Shown in pieces: positions 1-33,038 of a stretch of DNA of 33,038 bases. Origin of the DNA: Ruminococcus sp. (lineage in GTDB: Bacteria; Bacillota; Clostridia; Oscillospirales; Ruminococcaceae); contig JAGAQC010000056.1 of the NCBI GenBank assembly GCA_017622925.1, forward strand, positions 1 through 33,038, written 5' to 3'. The position numbers and the translations under genes were made by a program. A model generated the notes under the pieces. It saw only the letters and a program-made list of their open reading frames with translations. It made no database searches and was not told where the DNA came from. Each line of letters begins with the position of its first letter. The first letter of the stretch is position 1.

Positions 1-136
1 AGCCGCAAAAAACAGTGAATAATGAATGATAATATGATATTTTTCCTGCTTTAGCAATAAAAAATTTGCTGAGACAGGATTTTTTTCTGAGTCATCTCAA
101 ACTCGTCTATATGGACTTTAATCAGCGTTTCCTTAG
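1..136. repeat. 136-bp inverted repeat, left copy
   Basis: Bases 1-136 are the exact reverse complement of 32899-33034. The inner boundary is sharp and starts with CTAAGGAAACG when read outward. On this side it interrupts the pilin-like gene on the minus strand. I see no transposase in the window. The copies face outward, so they are probably the same end of an insertion-type element lying just beyond each edge, a place where assemblies often break. The element family is unidentified. Confidence 0.85.
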
Positions 137-452
137 ATAATCCAAGACCAGCGTCTTCACTTGTTATAGCTGCAATAAATTTAGCTAATTCACTTTGAGT
201 TTCTGAACCAGAAGCAGTATTTGAAATTGCCCAGCTATCAATATTTACAGCACCGGTATCAGTTACAGAAACTTTAAAAATTTCATAAGCTTTTACATCA
301 TCAATTATTGAATCTGTTGGAACATTTGTCGGCATTGCTAAAGACAACGTTGTTGCAGCACTTGCAGTAAGATTCATAGCCATTGGAGCAACCGCGCAAG
401 CCGCTAAAGCGACAGCCGAAACCATAGCCGCAAATTTTTTAAATTTTCTCAT
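51..452 (-). CDS. Pilin-like secreted protein, 3' end replaced by repeat
   Basis: The protein opens with a Sec signal peptide: a basic start (MRKFKKF), a hydrophobic core and a likely cleavage after TASA. The mature part has a short stretch (KAYEIFKV, then ELAKFI) like the N-terminal region of SpaA-type, isopeptide-forming pilins of sortase-assembled pili; this is inference from motif style. The reading frame meets the 136-bp repeat near base 136, and its last ~28 residues are encoded by the repeat. The native C-terminus and any LPXTG sorting signal are therefore missing. A start at 452 is preferred over the ATG at 473, which lies upstream of the TGGAG ribosome site. It sits directly downstream of a signal peptidase gene, typical of a pilus locus. 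Confidence 0.55.
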   Translation of the reverse strand: MRKFKKFAAMVSAVALAACAVAPMAMNLTASAATTLSLAMPTNVPTDSIIDDVKAYEIFKVSVTDTGAVNIDSWAISNTASGSETQSELAKFIAAITSEDAGLGLSKETLIKVHIDEFEMTQKKILSQQIFYC

Positions 453-26489: not shown

Positions 26490-27392
26490 TTATTTTTTTC
26501 TTTTTGAATTAACTTTCTTCTTTGCCCATACGAAGTATTCAGGCATACTTGTGAACAGAAAATAGTTTTCTTCACATTCCACTATAAATTCTTCAATAGT
26601 AAACGGGCTGTATCCATAAGAGAAACTGTCGCTGACTGATTCCATCAAAGAACCGTCCATTAAATCGTTAAAGAATTTATGCGTATCTTTGTTCACAGCC
26701 ATCAGTTTTTTCAGATACTGATTTGACTTACGCATGTCGCCGAGTTTATAATACAATATGGATAACGGCAGTAAAAATTGTGTGCCTTCCTCAGGATATT
26801 TTTCATAAAGTTCAAGCGCTGACTGTTCATCTTCTAAAAATGTATAAAGGTGCATAAGAGTGTACCGCACACCTAAATTGTCATTAGTACACAGTTCCAG
26901 CATTTTTTCATATACTGAAATTGCAAGCCGCATCTGTCCGCATTGAACAAAGTGAGAAGCATATTTTTCCAACAGTCGCATATACGGACGTGTTTCAAAT
27001 ACAAGCCAGAAGTTTCCTATATTGTCGTCTTCAAAATACCCTTGTTCTTTTAATTTTTCCTCTGCTTCGGCAATAAGATCCCTATATTTTTCAGCCAACT
27101 TTTCGCTTGAAGTGCAGGAAAGTTCAAGCACCATAGACGCAGCGTCAAGATTGTCAGGTTCAAGTTCAACAGCTTTTTTCGCATACTTTAAAGCTTCCTT
27201 TTTAGTATCTGCCGATTCGGCAAGCTCTAAATAATCGTCCGCTGTCTCAATATCGTTTGCTGACGGCTGATATTTCGACATAAATGCCTGCATAGCATTG
27301 TTCATGTCTTCCTCGCTGTTTATTTCAATGCCGTCGTTTTCCTGCATAAAACGTTCAAATTCTTTAAATAATTTCTCTGTTTGTATGCTCAT
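26490..27392 (-). CDS. TPR-repeat protein
   Basis: A 300-residue soluble protein. Residues ~45-90 (ADDYLELAESADTKKEALKY, then a stretch with VELEPDNLDAASMV) form a clear tetratricopeptide repeat; more helical repeats follow at ~140-230 (CGQMRLAISVYEKML, DEQSALELYEKYP). The C-terminus ends in a basic tail. The start at 27392 has a TGGAG site; the longer open frame runs into the promoter cassette A and is not likely coding. Its promoter is inside repeat cassette A. Function unknown; a protein-interaction role only. Confidence 0.75.
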   Translation of the reverse strand: MSIQTEKLFKEFERFMQENDGIEINSEEDMNNAMQAFMSKYQPSANDIETADDYLELAESADTKKEALKYAKKAVELEPDNLDAASMVLELSCTSSEKLAEKYRDLIAEAEEKLKEQGYFEDDNIGNFWLVFETRPYMRLLEKYASHFVQCGQMRLAISVYEKMLELCTNDNLGVRYTLMHLYTFLEDEQSALELYEKYPEEGTQFLLPLSILYYKLGDMRKSNQYLKKLMAVNKDTHKFFNDLMDGSLMESVSDSFSYGYSPFTIEEFIVECEENYFLFTSMPEYFVWAKKKVNSKRKK

Positions 27393-27477
27393 AACAAGCT
27401 CCATTCTGCCATATACGGCGGTATCGTTTATCAGACCTCCTCGGAAACTTGGCAGTCTGTTTTTCATTCTTACATAT

Positions 27478-27506
27478 ATTTTACAATATTTCGCGAAGAT
27501 TGTCAA
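27478..27506 (-). promoter_or_regulatory. Cassette A promoter
   Basis: Minus-strand TTGACA (27501-27506) and TAAAAT (27478-27483), spacing 17. The same arrangement is kept in cassettes B and C. Confidence 0.72.
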
Positions 27507-27611
27507 TATTTCTGTTGAATCGTTTATAAATTGTTAATAAATTTCGGACTCATGAAGCCTATGAAAACCTTTTTCGACAAAACCCTTTTAGATATCATCT
27601 AAATTAAAAAA

Positions 27612-27637
27612 ACTGTAAGCAATCAAATACTTACAGT
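27612..27637 (-). terminator. Cassette A terminator
   Basis: Stem ACTGTAAG/CTTACAGT with a 10-base loop. A T-rich run follows on the minus strand (and a shorter one on the plus). It is the natural terminator of the tRNA-Leu fragment. Confidence 0.7.
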
Positions 27638-27648
27638 CTTTTCGTCAT

Positions 27649-27703
27649 TGTGCGGATAACAGGAGTTGAACCTGCACCGAGTTGCCCCGACCGGCACCTG
27701 AGG
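27649..27703 (-). pseudogene. tRNA-Leu 3' half, copy A
   Basis: On the minus strand: an anticodon-loop-like CTCAGGT (CAG anticodon), then GCCGG, a class II variable arm (CGGG-GCAA-CTCG), a T-arm with TTCAACT loop, and the acceptor 3' strand TATCCGCA. The 5' half of the tRNA is missing. The CCA is altered to CAA. Not a working tRNA. Confidence 0.7.
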
Positions 27704-27744
27704 GTTGTGTAACGTTTTTGTCACTGAATTTTGTATAAGAAGTT

Positions 27745-27844
27745 TCGTTTTTATTAGTTCATCTACATTATCTTCTTGCCAATCCGTTAAATTATTTTTA
27801 TCAGTATTATTGTCGGAGTTGAATTCTACATCAAACGAAATTTT
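27745..27844 (-). pseudogene. Truncated calcium-repeat segment (copy of 31837-31938)
   Basis: Minus-strand frame reading SFDVEFNSDNNTDKNNLTDW and ending near VDELIK is a close relative of the opening of the metalloprotease module at 31837-31938. It follows an in-frame stop and has no start codon. After VDELIK the similarity ends, and the frame runs into cassette A. The remaining ~30 bases to 27875 hold nothing. Confidence 0.7.
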
Positions 27845-27875
27845 TTAATTTACTGATGACTTTTTGAATGAAAAA

Positions 27876-28508
27876 TCATTGATACTCTTTCAGGTAATTT
27901 TCCATGATAGCTATCTTTTTATTTAAAGATTCTGTATCACTAATCATTTCCTCTGTTAAACCATATTTTTCAAGTCCCTCAAAATCTTTATTTACGAATT
28001 TTTCACCCATTTCTACAAGTTCATTATGATAAAGTCTGTCTAAATCTGTAAGGCAAATTTCCATAAGAGTACTGTCACATAACAACTCGTTTTTTACTTT
28101 GGCAGTTTCATCTTCTGTCATGTAATAATAATTATCATTGAGATAAAGACCTGTATAGAAGAACTCATCATATTTTTTTATTTTAAAAATATACAGCTTA
28201 GTTGTGTCATAATCGTCCATGCTGTCATTAATGTAGTAGCATCTGAAATACTGATTATCGCATATAGCTTGAAGATCTCTCTTATCTGAAAAATTATTTA
28301 TATATAAATAAAAATCAGAATTTTTATCTTCTATACAACATATCTCTCCCCAAGCATCACTGGTAACTCTGAATTTATCTCCATATTTGGTTTTAATGTT
28401 AATATGAGTATCCCCGAAAAGATATATCAAAAAGGAACAATTACAACATGTGTTTATCAAAAATATGATAAGGACTATGACTATTATTTTTTTATATTTT
28501 TTCTTCAT
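27876..28508 (-). CDS. Membrane-anchored protein, paralog of 31970-32626
   Basis: A 210-residue protein with one N-terminal hydrophobic segment (residues ~8-30, with a Cys pair), then a soluble outer part. It shares about half its residues with the 218-residue protein at 31970-32626, notably the C-terminal block LEKYGLTEEMISDTESLN and IAIMENYLKEYQ. Both are preceded by an overlapping remnant of the same upstream gene and followed by the same calcium-repeat segment. No known family recognised. By position it could be an immunity-type partner of the upstream gene. Confidence 0.7.
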   Translation of the reverse strand: MKKKYKKIIVIVLIIFLINTCCNCSFLIYLFGDTHINIKTKYGDKFRVTSDAWGEICCIEDKNSDFYLYINNFSDKRDLQAICDNQYFRCYYINDSMDDYDTTKLYIFKIKKYDEFFYTGLYLNDNYYYMTEDETAKVKNELLCDSTLMEICLTDLDRLYHNELVEMGEKFVNKDFEGLEKYGLTEEMISDTESLNKKIAIMENYLKEYQ

Positions 28509-28605
28509 TCACTTTTTCCCCTATCACTCTCATTAAAGCATATCTAAGAGCTTCGGATTCTTCAATTGTAATATCACCTGAATAATTAAAGCATAATTTG
28601 GTATA
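28492..28605 (-). pseudogene. 3' remnant of a gene like 32604-32969
   Basis: The minus-strand frame ending YSGDITIEESEALRYALMR and then KVNEEKI aligns with the end of the protein at 32604-32969 (HPGIVTEEESIALRNGF, ending SEENNMG). The remnant overlaps the start of the 210-residue gene by 17 bases, as its counterpart does with the 218-residue gene. The 5' part is gone. Confidence 0.6.
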
Positions 28606-28639
28606 ACTGGCGAATCACCATCGCCCACCTCTCTCAAAG

Positions 28640-28902
28640 TCACAATTTTTTTACACGTTTAATTCTAAACGTCATGTCAACGCCAAGCAATAAAAAGGGA
28701 AGTGATAATGCCATTTCAGCCATAATAAACTCAATAATGTCACTTTTTGTTTCTGATGTTTTCGGTCTGAAAATGAGATATATAAGAACGCCAAAAACCA
28801 CTCCAAAAAATACGCGCCTATCTCTGATGCACGACAATATGCAAAACTGAAATAAGAGATTCCCAATGGATTATCAACAGCTTTATAAGTTTCTCTTTCC
28901 AT
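28640..28902 (-). pseudogene. Small two-helix membrane protein with frameshift
   Basis: The start (MERETYKAVDNPLGISYF) is in one frame and the two hydrophobic segments and end (FFGVVFGVLIYLIF, then DMTFRIKRVKKL) are in another. The shift falls in a T6 run at about 28804-28809. Joined, it would be ~87 residues. It lies right after cassette B, whose promoter would drive it. Could be a sequencing error, a true break, or slippage. Confidence 0.6.
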
Positions 28903-28966
28903 AATCCCTATACATTTTTTTTAGACCTCCTCGGAAACTTGGAAGTCTATTTTTATTCTTACATAT

Positions 28967-28995
28967 ATTTTACAATATTTTGCAAAGATTGTCAA
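28967..28995 (-). promoter_or_regulatory. Cassette B promoter
   Basis: TTGACA and TAAAAT, 17-base spacing, on the minus strand. The spacer differs from copy A at a few bases but both boxes are kept. Confidence 0.7.
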
Positions 28996-29099
28996 TATTT
29001 CTGTTAAACTATTTATAAATTGTTAATAAATTTCGGATTCATGAAGCCTATGAAAACCTCTTTTGACAAAGCCCTTTTAGATGTCACCTAAATTAAAAA

Positions 29100-29125
29100 A
29101 CTGTAAGCAATCAAATACTTACAGT
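29100..29125 (-). terminator. Cassette B terminator
   Basis: Same ACTGTAAG/CTTACAGT stem as copies A and C, followed by a T-run on the minus strand. Confidence 0.68.
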
Positions 29126-29136
29126 CTTTTTGTCGT

Positions 29137-29177
29137 TGGTGCGGATAACAGGAGTTGAACCTGCACCGAGTTGCCCC
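29137..29177 (-). pseudogene. tRNA-Leu 3' end, copy B
   Basis: T-arm, acceptor 3' strand TATCCGCA and an encoded CCA are intact, but the similarity stops inside the variable arm (GGGGCAAC). Shorter than copies A and C. Confidence 0.68.
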
Positions 29178-29185
29178 TAAAATTG

Positions 29186-29698
29186 TTATTGGGGATTATT
29201 TTCTTTGGCATTATAATATCCTATAGCATAATTAAACTTATCTTTTTTGAATATTGGTATCATATCGAATTGTTCATCAAAACTATAAGGTTTTAATTGT
29301 TCTTGATTCAAAGGTATCTTACAAGTCCAAATTTCTGATATATTATTATCTACAATTTTTAATGTCCAATAAAAAGCTATTGATCTTTCAGGACTTGGAT
29401 TAACACTTATATTTTTTCTTTGATCACAATATTCATTAGTATCAATTATTAAATTATAATAGTTAGTTGTTTGCCCTGATATATATACTACTCCTTGTTC
29501 AGGTATATTGTTTTCTATACAATAATCAAAAAAGCTATAGTTATCTGACATAATACATTTTAAAATACTTTCTGCATCATAGTTACTCATATAAATATAG
29601 TTTTTGGTAACATTACGAAGAGATGCTATGGTAATCAGTACTAAAAACATTACAAGCAATGATAATGTAATTGATAAATATTTTATTACTTGTTTCAT
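29186..29698 (-). CDS. Membrane-anchored protein of unknown function
   Basis: A 170-residue protein with one N-terminal hydrophobic helix (residues ~7-28) and a soluble outer domain rich in Asn, Tyr and Ile. A GAGGAG site supplied by cassette C lies 6 bases ahead of the ATG, so it is expressed from that cassette. It ends 9 bases before the tRNA fragment of cassette B. No family recognised. Low GC suggests horizontal origin. Confidence 0.65.
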   Translation of the reverse strand: MKQVIKYLSITLSLLVMFLVLITIASLRNVTKNYIYMSNYDAESILKCIMSDNYSFFDYCIENNIPEQGVVYISGQTTNYYNLIIDTNEYCDQRKNISVNPSPERSIAFYWTLKIVDNNISEIWTCKIPLNQEQLKPYSFDEQFDMIPIFKKDKFNYAIGYYNAKENNPQ

Positions 29699-29744
29699 AT
29701 TTTCTCCTCAGAAACTTGGCAGCCTTTTTTTCATTCTTACATAT

Positions 29745-29773
29745 ATTTTACAATATCTTGCGAAGATTGTCAA
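29745..29773 (-). promoter_or_regulatory. Cassette C promoter
   Basis: TTGACA and TAAAAT with 17-base spacing on the minus strand, ~47 bases ahead of the start codon at 29698. Confidence 0.72.
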
Positions 29774-29877
29774 TATTTCTGTTGAACCGTTTATAAATTG
29801 TTAATAAATTTCGAATTCATGAAGCCTATGAAAACCTCTTTTGACAAAACCCTTTTAGATGTCACCTAAATTAAAAG

Positions 29878-29903
29878 ACTGTAAGCAATCAAATACTTAC
29901 AGT
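29878..29903 (-). terminator. Cassette C terminator
   Basis: ACTGTAAG/CTTACAGT stem, as in the other two copies; on the minus strand it is followed by a short T-run (TCTTTTAAT). Confidence 0.65.
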
Positions 29904-29914
29904 CTTTTTGTCAT

Positions 29915-29970
29915 TGGTGCGGATAACAGGAGTTGAACCTGCACCGAGTTGCCCCGAATGGCACCTGAGG
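29915..29970 (-). pseudogene. tRNA-Leu 3' half, copy C
   Basis: As copy A, beginning at the anticodon loop (CCTCAGGT), but with a changed stem (GCCAT for GCCGG) and an intact CCA. The 5' half is missing. Confidence 0.68.
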
Positions 29971-30039
29971 GCAGCGTCACGTTAGTGAATTAATGCTCTT
30001 TAACTATAGATTACTTAGCAGAATCATAAAAAAAATCAA

Positions 30040-30163: not shown

Positions 30164-30643
30164 CTAAAGAATATTATACCCAAAAACTTCATAAAAAACT
30201 TCTGCCATTTTATCATAAGTAAATGGAAATTTGGCATAACAATGTGTTTCTTGAACAGAACCATCTGTGAACTTAATATGGATAGTTACTCCTTTCCCAT
30301 CGTAAACATTTGAATTGTCATATGATTCTTTCCAGCAGAAAAAACCATATAAATTCGCTTTCTTCATAAAAGATTCTGCATCTTTATCAGTGAATTTTTT
30401 ATAAACAGTTTTACTTTCATCGTTATCACTATATCCTACTGTTTCATACATGAATGAATTATTTGGAAAATCAATTTCACATGTACATGTTGATAATAAG
30501 TAACCACTTTTACTTATTTTAATAGTTTCAATATCATTAGTATTTTTTTGACATATAAAATATCGCATCATAAATAAAATTATAACTCCAATAATCAAAG
30601 CCACAGATACTATTGATATCATTGTTCTTTTCTTTCTTTTCAT
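30164..30643 (-). CDS. Membrane-anchored protein, partner of the protease module
   Basis: A 159-residue protein. Basic start (MKRKKRT), one hydrophobic helix at residues ~8-28, and a soluble outer domain with several aromatic residues. It begins 14 bases after the metalloprotease module, with a GAGGT site, and a terminator follows, so the two are a unit. Unknown family. The layout (effector-like domain, then small membrane-anchored protein) is like toxin and immunity pairs, which is an inference. Confidence 0.65.
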   Translation of the reverse strand: MKRKKRTMISIVSVALIIGVIILFMMRYFICQKNTNDIETIKISKSGYLLSTCTCEIDFPNNSFMYETVGYSDNDESKTVYKKFTDKDAESFMKKANLYGFFCWKESYDNSNVYDGKGVTIHIKFTDGSVQETHCYAKFPFTYDKMAEVFYEVFGYNIL

Positions 30644-30657
30644 ATATACCTCATCAA

Positions 30658-31779
30658 TTATTCTGAAATTATATTACTTTTCCCATATACTTCTTCTAAT
30701 TCAGTTATAGTTACATTTATTCCATAATCCTCTTTTAATAATTCCTGATATGCATATGCATCACCTATTGAAGTAGTTGTTCTTGATTCTGAATCATAAA
30801 TGACAAATTCTTTATTATATTTATCTAAATATATATTGTTATTATTTTCTTTTATAGCTTTGGAAACTTCATTTTTCTTGTCAAATTCCGGTCTGAAATA
30901 TTGTCGTTGATTATCACAATATGCCTGTAAAATCATTTCTATATCATTTGGTCTTACCAATCCAAAGCTGCACATTAAATCACCATCAGGATTTTTCCCA
31001 TCATCTTTATACCATATTTCATTTTTAGTAGTTTTAATAATATCATAAACTACTGGTTGTAATCTCCATTTAGATTTATCAGAATATCCATAAAGATCAC
31101 TTAATCCTAATGCATGTCCCAATTCATGTGCTGGTGATGCAAATCGATTAACTTCCGCTAAATATTTTCCCGCATCATCTCTTGTAGATAATTCAATATA
31201 TTTTATATTTTTTGTTGTCCAGTCAATTCCAAACTTGGTATTAGTTGCATTATCATTTTTATCATTTATTTTAAATTTAATATATTTCTCATTAAACGAA
31301 GCTTCAATTAAATTTATTTCAATTTTAATAGACATTCCCGGATAAAAATCAAATATGTTTCCTTGAATTTCGGTATTCCATTTATCTGAAATAGATTTCA
31401 TAATAATTTCTTCGTTAGTGTAATATTCGGTTGAATCAGGTTTCATAATGTTAGACGATTCATATGCCTTGTCATTAAGTTTATATTTCACTTTTAGGAT
31501 GATAGTATTGTTATTTATATCAAGATATATAGGATTAGTATCAACATTAGTCTTACTATTTCGAGTCAGCTCAGGATATAAAGTTTCAATAGTATCTGCT
31601 TTTAATGGATCAATATTATCATACCTGCTGTCGGTTGTCAGATTTTTATATTCATCAGGATCTAAAATACCATCGCCGTCCGAATCAGCTTCAGTCGGGT
31701 CAGAAAAAATAGGAAGGTAATAATTAGGCACTTCATTTTCTGTTATAAATAAATATTTGTCGCCTCCATAACGCTTCAA
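30658..31779 (-). CDS. Metzincin-like zinc metalloprotease module, 5'-truncated
   Basis: The frame has a zinc site HELGHALGLSD (HExxHxxGxxD) and a downstream Met-turn-like DLMCSFGLVRPNDIEMI, typical of matrixin-like metzincins. Before it is a thrombospondin type 3-like calcium repeat (DPTEADSDGDGILDPDEY). The only start available is a TTG at 31779; the open frame continues upstream without any start to a stop at 31939. No signal peptide is present. It therefore looks like the C-terminal part of a larger surface protein, left as an orphan. The 159-residue gene follows. Confidence 0.7.
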   Translation of the reverse strand: MKRYGGDKYLFITENEVPNYYLPIFSDPTEADSDGDGILDPDEYKNLTTDSRYDNIDPLKADTIETLYPELTRNSKTNVDTNPIYLDINNNTIILKVKYKLNDKAYESSNIMKPDSTEYYTNEEIIMKSISDKWNTEIQGNIFDFYPGMSIKIEINLIEASFNEKYIKFKINDKNDNATNTKFGIDWTTKNIKYIELSTRDDAGKYLAEVNRFASPAHELGHALGLSDLYGYSDKSKWRLQPVVYDIIKTTKNEIWYKDDGKNPDGDLMCSFGLVRPNDIEMILQAYCDNQRQYFRPEFDKKNEVSKAIKENNNNIYLDKYNKEFVIYDSESRTTTSIGDAYAYQELLKEDYGINVTITELEEVYGKSNIISE

Positions 31780-31969: not shown

Positions 31970-32626
31970 TCATTGATATTCTTTCAGATAATTTTCCATG
32001 ATAGCTATCTTTTCATTTAAAGATTCGGTATCACTAATCATATCCTTGGTTAAACCATATTTTTCAAGTTCGTCAAATTCATGATTTATCAGTTTATTTC
32101 CAATTTCCAACATCTCATCATGATACAGATAATCTAAATCAATGATGCATATTTTCATAAGGAGATCATCACAAAGAAATTCACTTTTAACTTTTTCAGC
32201 ATCATCCTTAAACATATATTCAGATGAATATTTAACATCACCATAACGCACAGAGAAAAATTTGTCATACTTTTTAATTTTAAAAATAAATTTACCAGAA
32301 AATTTATCATTACCCAAATCACTATCGCCGTCAGAAATGTTGTAACATCTGATATATTGATTGTCACATATAGAATGAAATTGTTTTTTATCAGAAAAAT
32401 AATAAAGATCGGTAGAAAAATCTGAATTCACATCATTTATAACATACAAATCTCCAAAATCGTCACATAAAACACTAAATTGATCGCCAAATTCTGTTTT
32501 AACGCTTATTGTATCCGATGTAAAAAAAATAGAAAAAAATGTAATTGTCGCGATAAATGCCAATATAATGATTGTAGTTATAATATATCCTTTTTTCATC
32601 CTTTTAACCCATATTATTTTCTTCAC
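31970..32626 (-). CDS. Membrane-anchored protein, paralog of 27876-28508
   Basis: A 218-residue protein from a GTG at 32626, or 209 from an ATG at 32599. One hydrophobic helix near the N-terminus, then an outer soluble domain. The conserved C-terminal block (LEKYGLTKDMISDTESLN, then IAIMENYLKEYQ) is shared with the 210-residue protein. The GTG start overlaps the upstream gene by 23 bases. It precedes the start-less protease module. Function unknown; partner/immunity role inferred from the arrangement. Confidence 0.7.
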   Translation of the reverse strand: MKKIIWVKRMKKGYIITTIIILAFIATITFFSIFFTSDTISVKTEFGDQFSVLCDDFGDLYVINDVNSDFSTDLYYFSDKKQFHSICDNQYIRCYNISDGDSDLGNDKFSGKFIFKIKKYDKFFSVRYGDVKYSSEYMFKDDAEKVKSEFLCDDLLMKICIIDLDYLYHDEMLEIGNKLINHEFDELEKYGLTKDMISDTESLNEKIAIMENYLKEYQ

Positions 32627-32969
32627 TTAATTTTAAATCAATCCATTGACAAAATCCATTCCTAAGTGCTATTGATTCTTCTTCTGTTACTATTCCAGGA
32701 TGTTGTAGTGAATAAATTGGTACTTCTTCTATTGAAGTTATGTAAGAAGCTTCATATATATCCTTTATTTTTTGTACTTCAATTGTATCACTTGCAAATT
32801 TGTTCAGTATCAAATGTTTAATAAGATTGTTGCCTTTAGTATATTCTCCTACAAGTTCGTAAAATTCGTCTATTCCATTATAACAATTTATAAAATTACT
32901 AAGGAAACGCTGATTAAAGTCCATATAGACGAGTTTGAGATGACTCAGAAAAAAATCCTGTCTCAGCAA
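32604..32969 (-). CDS. 3' part of an unknown gene, cut by the 136-bp repeat
   Basis: The native part is 32604-32898 (about 97 residues, containing YTKGNNLIKHLILNKF and ending SEENNMG); the first ~24 residues of the open frame are encoded by the repeat. The true 5' end is lost. A shorter relative is at 28492-28605. Its position ahead of the 218-residue gene, which it overlaps, suggests a C-terminal effector domain with its partner. No family recognised. Confidence 0.5.
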   Translation of the reverse strand: MLRQDFFLSHLKLVYMDFNQRFLSNFINCYNGIDEFYELVGEYTKGNNLIKHLILNKFASDTIEVQKIKDIYEASYITSIEEVPIYSLQHPGIVTEEESIALRNGFCQWIDLKLSEENNMG

Positions 32970-33034
32970 ATTTTTTATTGCTAAAGCAGGAAAAATATCA
33001 TATTATCATTCATTATTCACTGTTTTTTGCGGCT
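32899..33034. repeat. 136-bp inverted repeat, right copy
   Basis: Exact reverse complement of 1-136; begins CTAAGGAAACG reading outward. The window continues for four more bases beyond it. See the left copy. Confidence 0.85.
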
Positions 33035-33038
33035 TGTA

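What the first reader, a model, noticed from the sequence alone, without database searches (positions are those of the whole stretch)
27433..29983. Three co-oriented tRNA-Leu-3'/terminator/promoter/RBS cassettes, each ahead of a different gene
A ~255-285 bp sequence occurs three times on the minus strand (27433-27716, 28923-29177, 29704-29983). Each has the 3' half of a class II tRNA (T-arm, acceptor strand, CCA in two copies), a hairpin terminator, a TTGACA-17-TAAAAT promoter and a GAGGAG site. Downstream genes differ: a TPR protein, a frameshifted two-helix protein, a 170-residue membrane-anchored protein. The tRNA part starts at the anticodon loop in two copies, a usual crossover site of integrases. 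This looks like a gene-cassette system in which a tRNA end plus promoter is the reused unit, giving each captured gene its own expression signals. No integrase is seen here.
Basis: partly seen in the sequence, partly recalled or inferred. Interest (0 to 1): 0.82.

Follow-up and report, generated by a model that had tools for sequence, protein, structure and literature searches.

The report
Stacked tRNA-Leu integration scars with promoters
Three repeated tRNA fragments in a gut Ruminococcus look like scars left where mobile DNA islands stacked up behind one leucine tRNA gene, and in this genome each scar also carries the same promoter, now placed in front of a different gene.

Summary
In detail: three minus-strand copies (92-94% identical) with a tRNA-Leu(CAG) 3' part, hairpin, TTGACA-17-TAAAAT and GAGGAG precede different genes. 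Relatives explain the tRNA part. Elements coding a large serine recombinase insert in the anticodon loop of tRNA-Leu(CAG), supply a new tRNA 3' half, and leave the old half displaced behind a conserved arm (CACTAWYRTGAC...). The arm pattern occurs at 38 places in 29 of 125 genus genomes; the reversed control at none. One relative lacking the array has intact tRNA-Leu(CAG) 39 bp before the same TPR gene. The array is most likely a worn stack of insertions, like Dehalococcoides ssrA islands and CIME accretions. The promoter is a separate module: at least seven full or partial copies in this genome and one good match elsewhere, before a TSCPD gene in a relative; it was probably copied locally. 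An integron-like, trans-mobilised cassette system is not excluded: 13 of 20 units between tRNA ends show no match to this recombinase, seven of them under 1.5 kb. No movement was shown, and the array's head, tRNA and any recombinase are not in this assembly.

The parts
29704..29983 (-). Copy A: element right arm + tRNA-Leu 3' part + terminator-like hairpin + promoter + GAGGAG
29963..29987 (-). Attachment-site arm CACTAACGTGACGCTGCCCTCAGGT (0 mismatches to the genus pattern), right end of an upstream element
29914..29976 (-). tRNA-Leu(CAG) 3' part in copy A, 95% identical to the L152 (G183) stretch that holds its intact tRNA-Leu(CAG)
29873..29908 (-). Terminator-like hairpin of copy A
   Evidence: not listed by the scan
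29745..29773 (-). Promoter TTGACA-17-TAAAAT of copy A
29186..29698 (-). 170-residue protein with an N-terminal hydrophobic stretch, sporadic in the genus
28923..29177 (-). Copy B: tRNA part truncated (29136-29177), hairpin 29095-29130, promoter 28995-28967, GAGGAG; no arm
28640..28902 (-). Frameshifted, truncated relative of the 183-residue gene at G000:C27:1466-2017; the -10 side of the promoter, leader and gene body match there (77% over 366 bp)
27876..28508 (-). 210-residue protein, paralogue of 31970-32626 (73% nt identity over 671 bp)
27433..27716 (-). Copy C: diverged arm CAAAAACGTTACACAACCCTCAGGT (3 mismatches), tRNA 3' part 27650-27701 (CCA lost), hairpin 27606-27643, promoter 27506-27478, GAGGAG
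26490..27392 (-). TPR protein, resident gene; directly downstream of intact tRNA-Leu(CAG) in G183
30164..31779 (-). Genes upstream of copy A: DUF6438-like protein (below Pfam cut-off) and a protein with a weak M6-metalloprotease match (below cut-off)

Best explanation
The three copies are displaced 3' halves (attR-type scars) of successive site-specific insertions behind tRNA-Leu(CAG). A mobilizable element coding a large serine recombinase recombines in the anticodon loop. It carries its own tRNA 3' half plus terminator, so the tRNA, and with it the target, is rebuilt at each insertion, and the old half is pushed downstream behind the element's right arm. Repeated insertions stack; the elements then lose recombinase and transfer genes and leave small cargo genes between scars. 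In this lineage a promoter region of about 80-100 bp, resembling the one before the TSCPD gene, was copied into the left end of one such unit, and two genes, the 170-residue gene and the resident TPR gene, came to be joined to it near the ribosome-binding site. For TPR this plausibly replaced read-through from the tRNA promoter, cut off by the terminators. Shown by comparison: arm, tRNA halves, recombinase next to the tRNA in relatives, one empty site, promoter copies. Inferred: order of insertions, deletions, promoter source, rescue of expression.
For: Arm pattern: 38 places in 29 of 125 genus genomes, reversed control 0 (the pattern was made from some of these sites); 19 exact stretches in the species collection, titled Ruminococcus (17), Oscillospiraceae bacterium (1), Clostridiales bacterium (1). 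Recombinase (Resolvase, Recombinase, Zn-ribbon) in 34 of 125 genomes at E 1e-60. Of 20 recombinase loci fetched (among the best of 48 places listed), 10 lie 34-646 bp from and convergent with tRNA-Leu(CAG), 3 near tRNA-Leu(TAG), 7 have no tRNA-Leu in view; the tree separates the CAG and TAG groups. The L105 element has relaxase, NikA/MobC, AAA_25 and Phd/ParE genes in the order tRNA - recombinase - mobilisation - cargo - arm + tRNA half. In L101 the intact tRNA and the displaced half differ in the variable arm, as expected if the element supplied the new half. Empty site G183: tRNA-Leu(CAG), 39 bp, TPR start. Promoter: at least 7 full or partial copies in G000 and 1 in G064 before the TSCPD gene; single-copy state in G064.
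Against: The intact tRNA-Leu(CAG) and its upstream neighbours in G183 gave no convincing DNA match in this 88%-complete assembly (the one other tRNA-Leu hit is CAA), so the head of the array is not seen. No recombinase of this family matched in this genome at E 1e-60. Copy B has no arm; that of copy C has 3 mismatches and was not among the hits. The three copies share about 200 bp beyond the tRNA, which insertions of unrelated elements would not give; a common left end, duplication or gene conversion is needed. Only one relative shows the empty site; in G051 (L153) the TPR gene has no tRNA-Leu upstream. Most loci studied were fetched because they hold scars, so they say nothing on frequency.
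Confidence: 0.78

Rival explanations
1. Gene-cassette system: recombinase-less units with an arm at one end and a tRNA half at the other circularise and are inserted behind tRNA-Leu by a recombinase acting in trans, much as integron cassettes are, the promoter-bearing left end being the reused platform. (Odds of the rivals overlap with the best explanation, since they share parts of it.)
For: 13 of 20 units between tRNA ends lack a match to this recombinase; nine are 0.3-3.3 kb; six run from an intact tRNA or an arm-bearing half to an arm-bearing half, among them L129 (1.36 kb, GIY-YIG-like + Imm26), L045 (2.05 kb) and L125 (3.26 kb). The 81-residue gene unit of about 0.3 kb is found behind intact tRNA-Leu in G011 and behind an arm-bearing scar in G085. 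Ends shared with different interiors in G043 and G085.
Against: Some units keep recombinase scraps in or beside them (L037, L046), and of the large recombinase-less units L102 keeps a relaxase gene and L122 an AAA_25 gene: they look like decayed elements. The G011/G085 case is equally explained by a later insertion in front of a resident unit. The G043 1.36-kb unit was not found whole in the other 124 genomes (which scored up to 3 candidates a genome). No circle or recent transfer seen. Other kinds of recombinase in the units were not searched for systematically.
Confidence: 0.17
2. Plain duplication: one tRNA-half/terminator/promoter unit was multiplied by unequal or ectopic homologous recombination, with no role for site-specific recombination at this locus after the first event.
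For: 92-94% identity over about 255-280 bp; the promoter also multiplied at the C16/C27 locus without tRNA halves; paralogous genes within the window (73% over 671 bp) and between the loci (75% and 77%).
Against: Arms in front of A and C differ from each other and both resemble the genus arm, which duplication of one unit does not predict; the genes between the copies are unrelated by the comparisons made.
Confidence: 0.2

Closest known systems
Dehalococcoides ssrA genomic islands (PMC3146451, passages seen)
   Same: Serine recombinase next to the RNA gene; tandem islands bounded by displaced 3' fragments of an RNA gene; 15 islands without the integration module
   Different: Target is the tmRNA gene, 20-bp repeat, two recombinase genes; here the anticodon loop of tRNA-Leu(CAG), about 50 bp restored, one large recombinase, and units as small as 0.3 kb
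CIMEs in tandem accretion with IMEs/ICEs (PMC5704250, passages seen)
   Same: Decayed elements keeping att sites, stacked with active elements at one target
   Different: The passages say that site-specific serine-recombinase IMEs disrupt dispensable genes; these rebuild a tRNA gene. Window units have lost part of their ends
SCC elements with Ccr recombinases (system recalled; NCBIfam CcrB match far below cut-off)
   Same: Large serine recombinase, target rebuilt at insertion, stacking of elements (recalled)
   Different: Target, host and gene content
Integron gene cassettes (recalled)
   Same: Single genes between recombination sites
   Different: No tyrosine integrase or attC identified here, each gene has its own promoter, target is a tRNA
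Tycheposons (recalled; search listing only)
   Same: tRNA-anchored remodelling of genomic islands (recalled)
   Different: From recall they use tyrosine recombinases, in marine cyanobacteria

Membership tests
Integrative mobilizable element with serine recombinase | Recombinase gene at one end | tested here: met
   Met in relatives (L047, L101, L105); not met in the window's genome
Integrative mobilizable element with serine recombinase | Relaxase / mobilisation genes | tested here: met
   L105: relaxase PF03432, NikA-like/MobC; relaxase also in L102, which lacks the recombinase; other elements not scanned for it; none among the 20 window proteins scanned
Integrative mobilizable element with serine recombinase | Excision as a circle and transfer | not testable with these tools
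   no reads, no experiment
CIME (att sites kept, no recombination or transfer genes) | att site at both ends | tested here: inconclusive
   Window: A has arm + half, C a diverged arm + half, B no arm. L129 and L125: arm + half at both ends
CIME (att sites kept, no recombination or transfer genes) | No recombinase or transfer gene | tested here: met
   Two window units: no recombinase match; the four ORFs scanned from them gave no such Pfam match
Integron cassette array | IntI-type tyrosine integrase and attC sites | tested here: inconclusive
   20 window proteins scanned with Pfam (10 at E 0.1, 10 at E 0.001; 97 ORFs listed), none matched an integrase; attC not modelled; the repeat is a tRNA half
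Plain tandem duplication | Same genes repeated with the unit | tested here: not met
   Genes between copies differ; upstream arms differ

The most novel reading that the evidence does not exclude
Ruminococcus tRNA-Leu(CAG) is an integron-like platform: recombinase-less cassettes of one or two genes (a toxin-immunity-like pair and small membrane proteins among them), each ending in an arm and starting with a tRNA half plus terminator, are circulated in trans by large serine recombinases of mobilizable elements, and in one lineage the cassette head has gained a promoter that makes each new gene expressed on arrival.
Probability: 0.15. Interest if true: 0.8.

Novelty: new variant of a known kind. 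Interest (0 to 1): 0.5.

Why it matters
It identifies a tRNA-Leu(CAG) insertion hot spot in rumen and gut Ruminococcus, with a recombinase family whose clades appear to follow the anticodon of the target tRNA; such recombinases with defined sites are also useful genetic tools. It suggests how stacked islands can cut a resident gene off from its promoter and how a copied promoter may restore it. If the small units move in trans, it would be a second kind of bacterial gene-cassette platform.

Tried and rejected
Phage origin: four 'phage' records matched; the two fetched (L149, L150) show ordinary bacterial genes by eye and an intact tRNA-Leu(CAG), so I take them for bacterial contigs; the other two were not fetched. 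No plasmid match. A longer arm pattern in viral contigs: none. ARAGORN and Rfam on the window: empty. PADLOC and NCBIfam gave no match for the 170-, 210- and 218-residue proteins. Whether encoded CCA marks element-supplied tRNA halves: 11 of 11 tRNAs with a convergent recombinase within 1 kb encode CCA, against 15 of 21 others (that 21 holds one contig-end truncation and two contigs not from the G genomes); not decisive, not used. The link with tRNA-Leu(TAG) is weaker than that with CAG: in G166 the nearby intact tRNA-Leu(TAG) differs from the displaced half, and 4 of 7 members of that clade show no tRNA. Structure prediction of the 170-residue protein never ran, so no fold search.

Full report
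Observation. The window is contig C32 of a 2.5-Mb, 76-contig, 88%-complete assembly. Three minus-strand copies of about 255-285 bp are present as described: A-C 92%, A-B 94%, B-C 92% identical. Each has a tRNA 3' part, a strong hairpin (not listed by the terminator scan), TTGACA-17-TAAAAT and GAGGAG. ARAGORN finds no tRNA in the window and Rfam gives no match. DNA searches of the assembly found no intact tRNA-Leu(CAG); the one further tRNA-Leu hit is the CAA isoacceptor.

What the tRNA part is. A BLAST of copy A against 149 relatives matched in 108 at E 0.001; apart from promoter matches, the best were intact tRNA-Leu(CAG) genes or 3' fragments of them. Many fragments begin at the anticodon loop and share an upstream arm that intact genes lack, typically TTCCACTAACGTGACGCTACCC; others are shorter and have lost it. 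A 25-letter pattern made from some of these sites, with up to 2 mismatches, occurs at 38 places in 29 of 125 genus genomes; the reversed pattern at none. In the collection of 84,980 species the exact pattern gave 19 stretches: 17 titled Ruminococcus, one Oscillospiraceae bacterium, one Clostridiales bacterium. Copy A of the window matches the pattern exactly, copy C has 3 mismatches, and copy B has lost the arm and the anticodon part.

The recombinase. Beside the intact tRNA-Leu(CAG) in G075 lies a 530-residue large serine recombinase (Resolvase, Recombinase, Zn-ribbon). Matches at E 1e-60 or better occur in 34 of 125 genomes, not in G000. I looked at 20 loci among the best of the 48 places listed: 10 have a convergent tRNA-Leu(CAG) 34-646 bp away, 3 a tRNA-Leu(TAG), 1 only a tRNA-Thr, 6 no tRNA. 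In the tree the CAG-linked ones all fall in one clade of 13 and the TAG-linked ones in the other clade of 7. Of the 3 members of the CAG clade without tRNA-Leu in view, two lie at or within 616 bp of a contig end and one follows an arm-bearing scar. The element of G050 (L105; the contig is that of Ruminococcus flavefaciens YAD2003 by its length) runs tRNA - recombinase - relaxase - NikA/MobC - AAA_25 - other cargo - Phd/ParE - arm + tRNA half over 8.8 kb. In G149 (L101) the intact tRNA and the displaced half differ in the variable arm, as expected if the element supplied the new half. In G149 a partial recombinase gene directly follows the scar, which suggests a stack. Together this is a mobilizable element that rebuilds the tRNA and so keeps the target usable.

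Units between scars. In 45 loci, most chosen because they hold scars or tRNA-Leu, 20 units between successive tRNA ends on one strand were found; 7 hold a match to the recombinase at E 1e-5, 13 do not. Lengths without: 0.32, 0.33, 0.78 and 1.49 (both window), 1.33, 1.36, 1.36, 2.05, 3.26, 4.4, 6.9, 8.7 and 10.3 kb. Six of the 13 run from an intact tRNA or an arm-bearing half to an arm-bearing half; the rest have at least one worn end. Only this recombinase was searched for; of the large units, L102 keeps a relaxase gene and ParE, L122 an AAA_25 gene and ParE, as decayed elements would. The 1.36-kb unit of G043 has an arm at both ends and codes a GIY-YIG-like protein (just under the Pfam cut-off) and an Imm26 protein. 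An 81-residue gene unit of about 0.3 kb lies directly behind the intact tRNA in G011 and behind an arm-bearing scar in G085. Some scars still have recombinase scraps beside them (L037, L046). This fits stacks of elements in all stages of decay; it does not prove that small units move by themselves. The G043 unit was not found whole in the other 124 genomes (up to 3 candidates scored in each), but its left and right ends occur separately in G085.

The empty site. The resident TPR gene has relatives at E 1e-15 in 2 of the other 124 genomes. In G183 the order is efp, a 158-residue gene, intact tRNA-Leu(CAG), 39 bp, TPR start; I see no promoter or terminator in those 39 bp. DNA similarity between the window and G183 begins 28 bp before the TPR start (window 27420); upstream of it the window has copy C. 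So I infer that the array was inserted between tRNA-Leu(CAG) and TPR, and the TPR gene now stands behind the copied promoter. In G051 the TPR gene has other neighbours, which tells nothing about insertion. The G183 stretch with efp and the 158-residue gene has no convincing DNA match in this assembly beyond the tRNA and TPR parts, so the head of the array is unseen.

The promoter is a separate module. Searched alone, the promoter region has seven matches in this genome, of 106, 106, 105, 99, 81, 46 and 33 bp: three in the window, one at C16, three at C27 (where 7 candidates were scored; one search scored 40 and found the same seven places). Elsewhere there is one good match, 86% over 81 bp in G064; all other matches, in 9 further genomes, are 52 bp or shorter. 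In G064 it lies once, before a TSCPD-domain gene. In G000 the corresponding place is filled by LRR genes (one scanned) and by the intact relative of the window's frameshifted gene, each with a full or partial promoter copy; C16 and C27 share an exact 176-bp end overlap, so they are probably adjacent. The -10 side of the promoter, leader and gene body match between copy B and C27 (77% over 366 bp), and a DUF6438-like gene is also shared by the two loci (75% over 501 bp). So a promoter-plus-gene unit was probably copied between the loci, direction unproven; the leader shared by A, B and C suggests that the genes behind A and C were joined to it later.

Against my reading. The three copies share about 200 bp beyond the tRNA, including the promoter, so the insertions were not of unrelated elements; duplication or gene conversion must have helped. 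Copy B cannot be classed as an attachment site on its own. The arm pattern was built from part of the sites it was then counted on; the reversed control guards only against composition. The assembly is from a metagenome, judging by its fragmentation and completeness; both contig ends carry a 141-bp stretch shared with the ends of C40 and C56, a sign of repeat-broken assembly, and a misassembly within the array is not excluded.

Literature. I saw passages of PMC3146451, PMC5704250 and PMC5357655. Dehalococcoides ssrA islands are the nearest described case I found: serine recombinase, RNA gene, tandem islands, 15 without the integration module. The IME review describes CIMEs and accretion and says that site-specific serine-recombinase IMEs disrupt dispensable genes; the streptococcal survey's passages name tRNA-Leu targets for tyrosine integrases. 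Searches combining serine recombinase or integrase with tRNA, Ruminococcus or anticodon listed no paper that by its title or opening describes a serine-recombinase element in tRNA-Leu of Ruminococcus; the lists showed 10-15 of 39-191 papers, only open-licence papers are held, and I opened none of the others.

Noticed in passing
window 1-141 and 32899-33038: Both contig ends are inverted copies of one stretch of about 141 bp that also ends contigs C40 and C56: an assembly overlap at a repeat.
   Followed up: yes
L129:6206-7138 (G043:C83): A 1.36-kb unit with an arm at both ends codes a GIY-YIG-like protein and an Imm26 immunity protein, a toxin-immunity pair by appearance.
   Followed up: partly
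L102 (G035:C1:93000-110000): A 10.3-kb recombinase-less unit behind tRNA-Leu(CAG) carries panB and panC (Pfam), a gene that looks like panD by eye, a relaxase gene and ParE.
   Followed up: partly
L113 (G166:C3:141000-158000): Near a recombinase of the TAG clade an intact tRNA-Leu(TAG) differs from the displaced tRNA half at the other end; perhaps an element-borne tRNA.
   Followed up: no
L012:1-2148 and L013:1380-2044 (G000:C27, C16): LRR gene array inserted before a TSCPD gene with the gene's promoter repeated; single promoter in G064.
   Followed up: partly
L014:952-1130 (G000:C8): Part of the window unit between hairpin and promoter resembles a short repeat with TAGGCAACCTCTAAAA-like inverted ends (by eye), perhaps a MITE.
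   Followed up: no
L105:2984-3181 and similar in L101 and L047: A 60-65-residue ORF lies directly behind the recombinase gene in three elements, similar by eye; no Pfam match for the L105 one; possible accessory factor.
   Followed up: no
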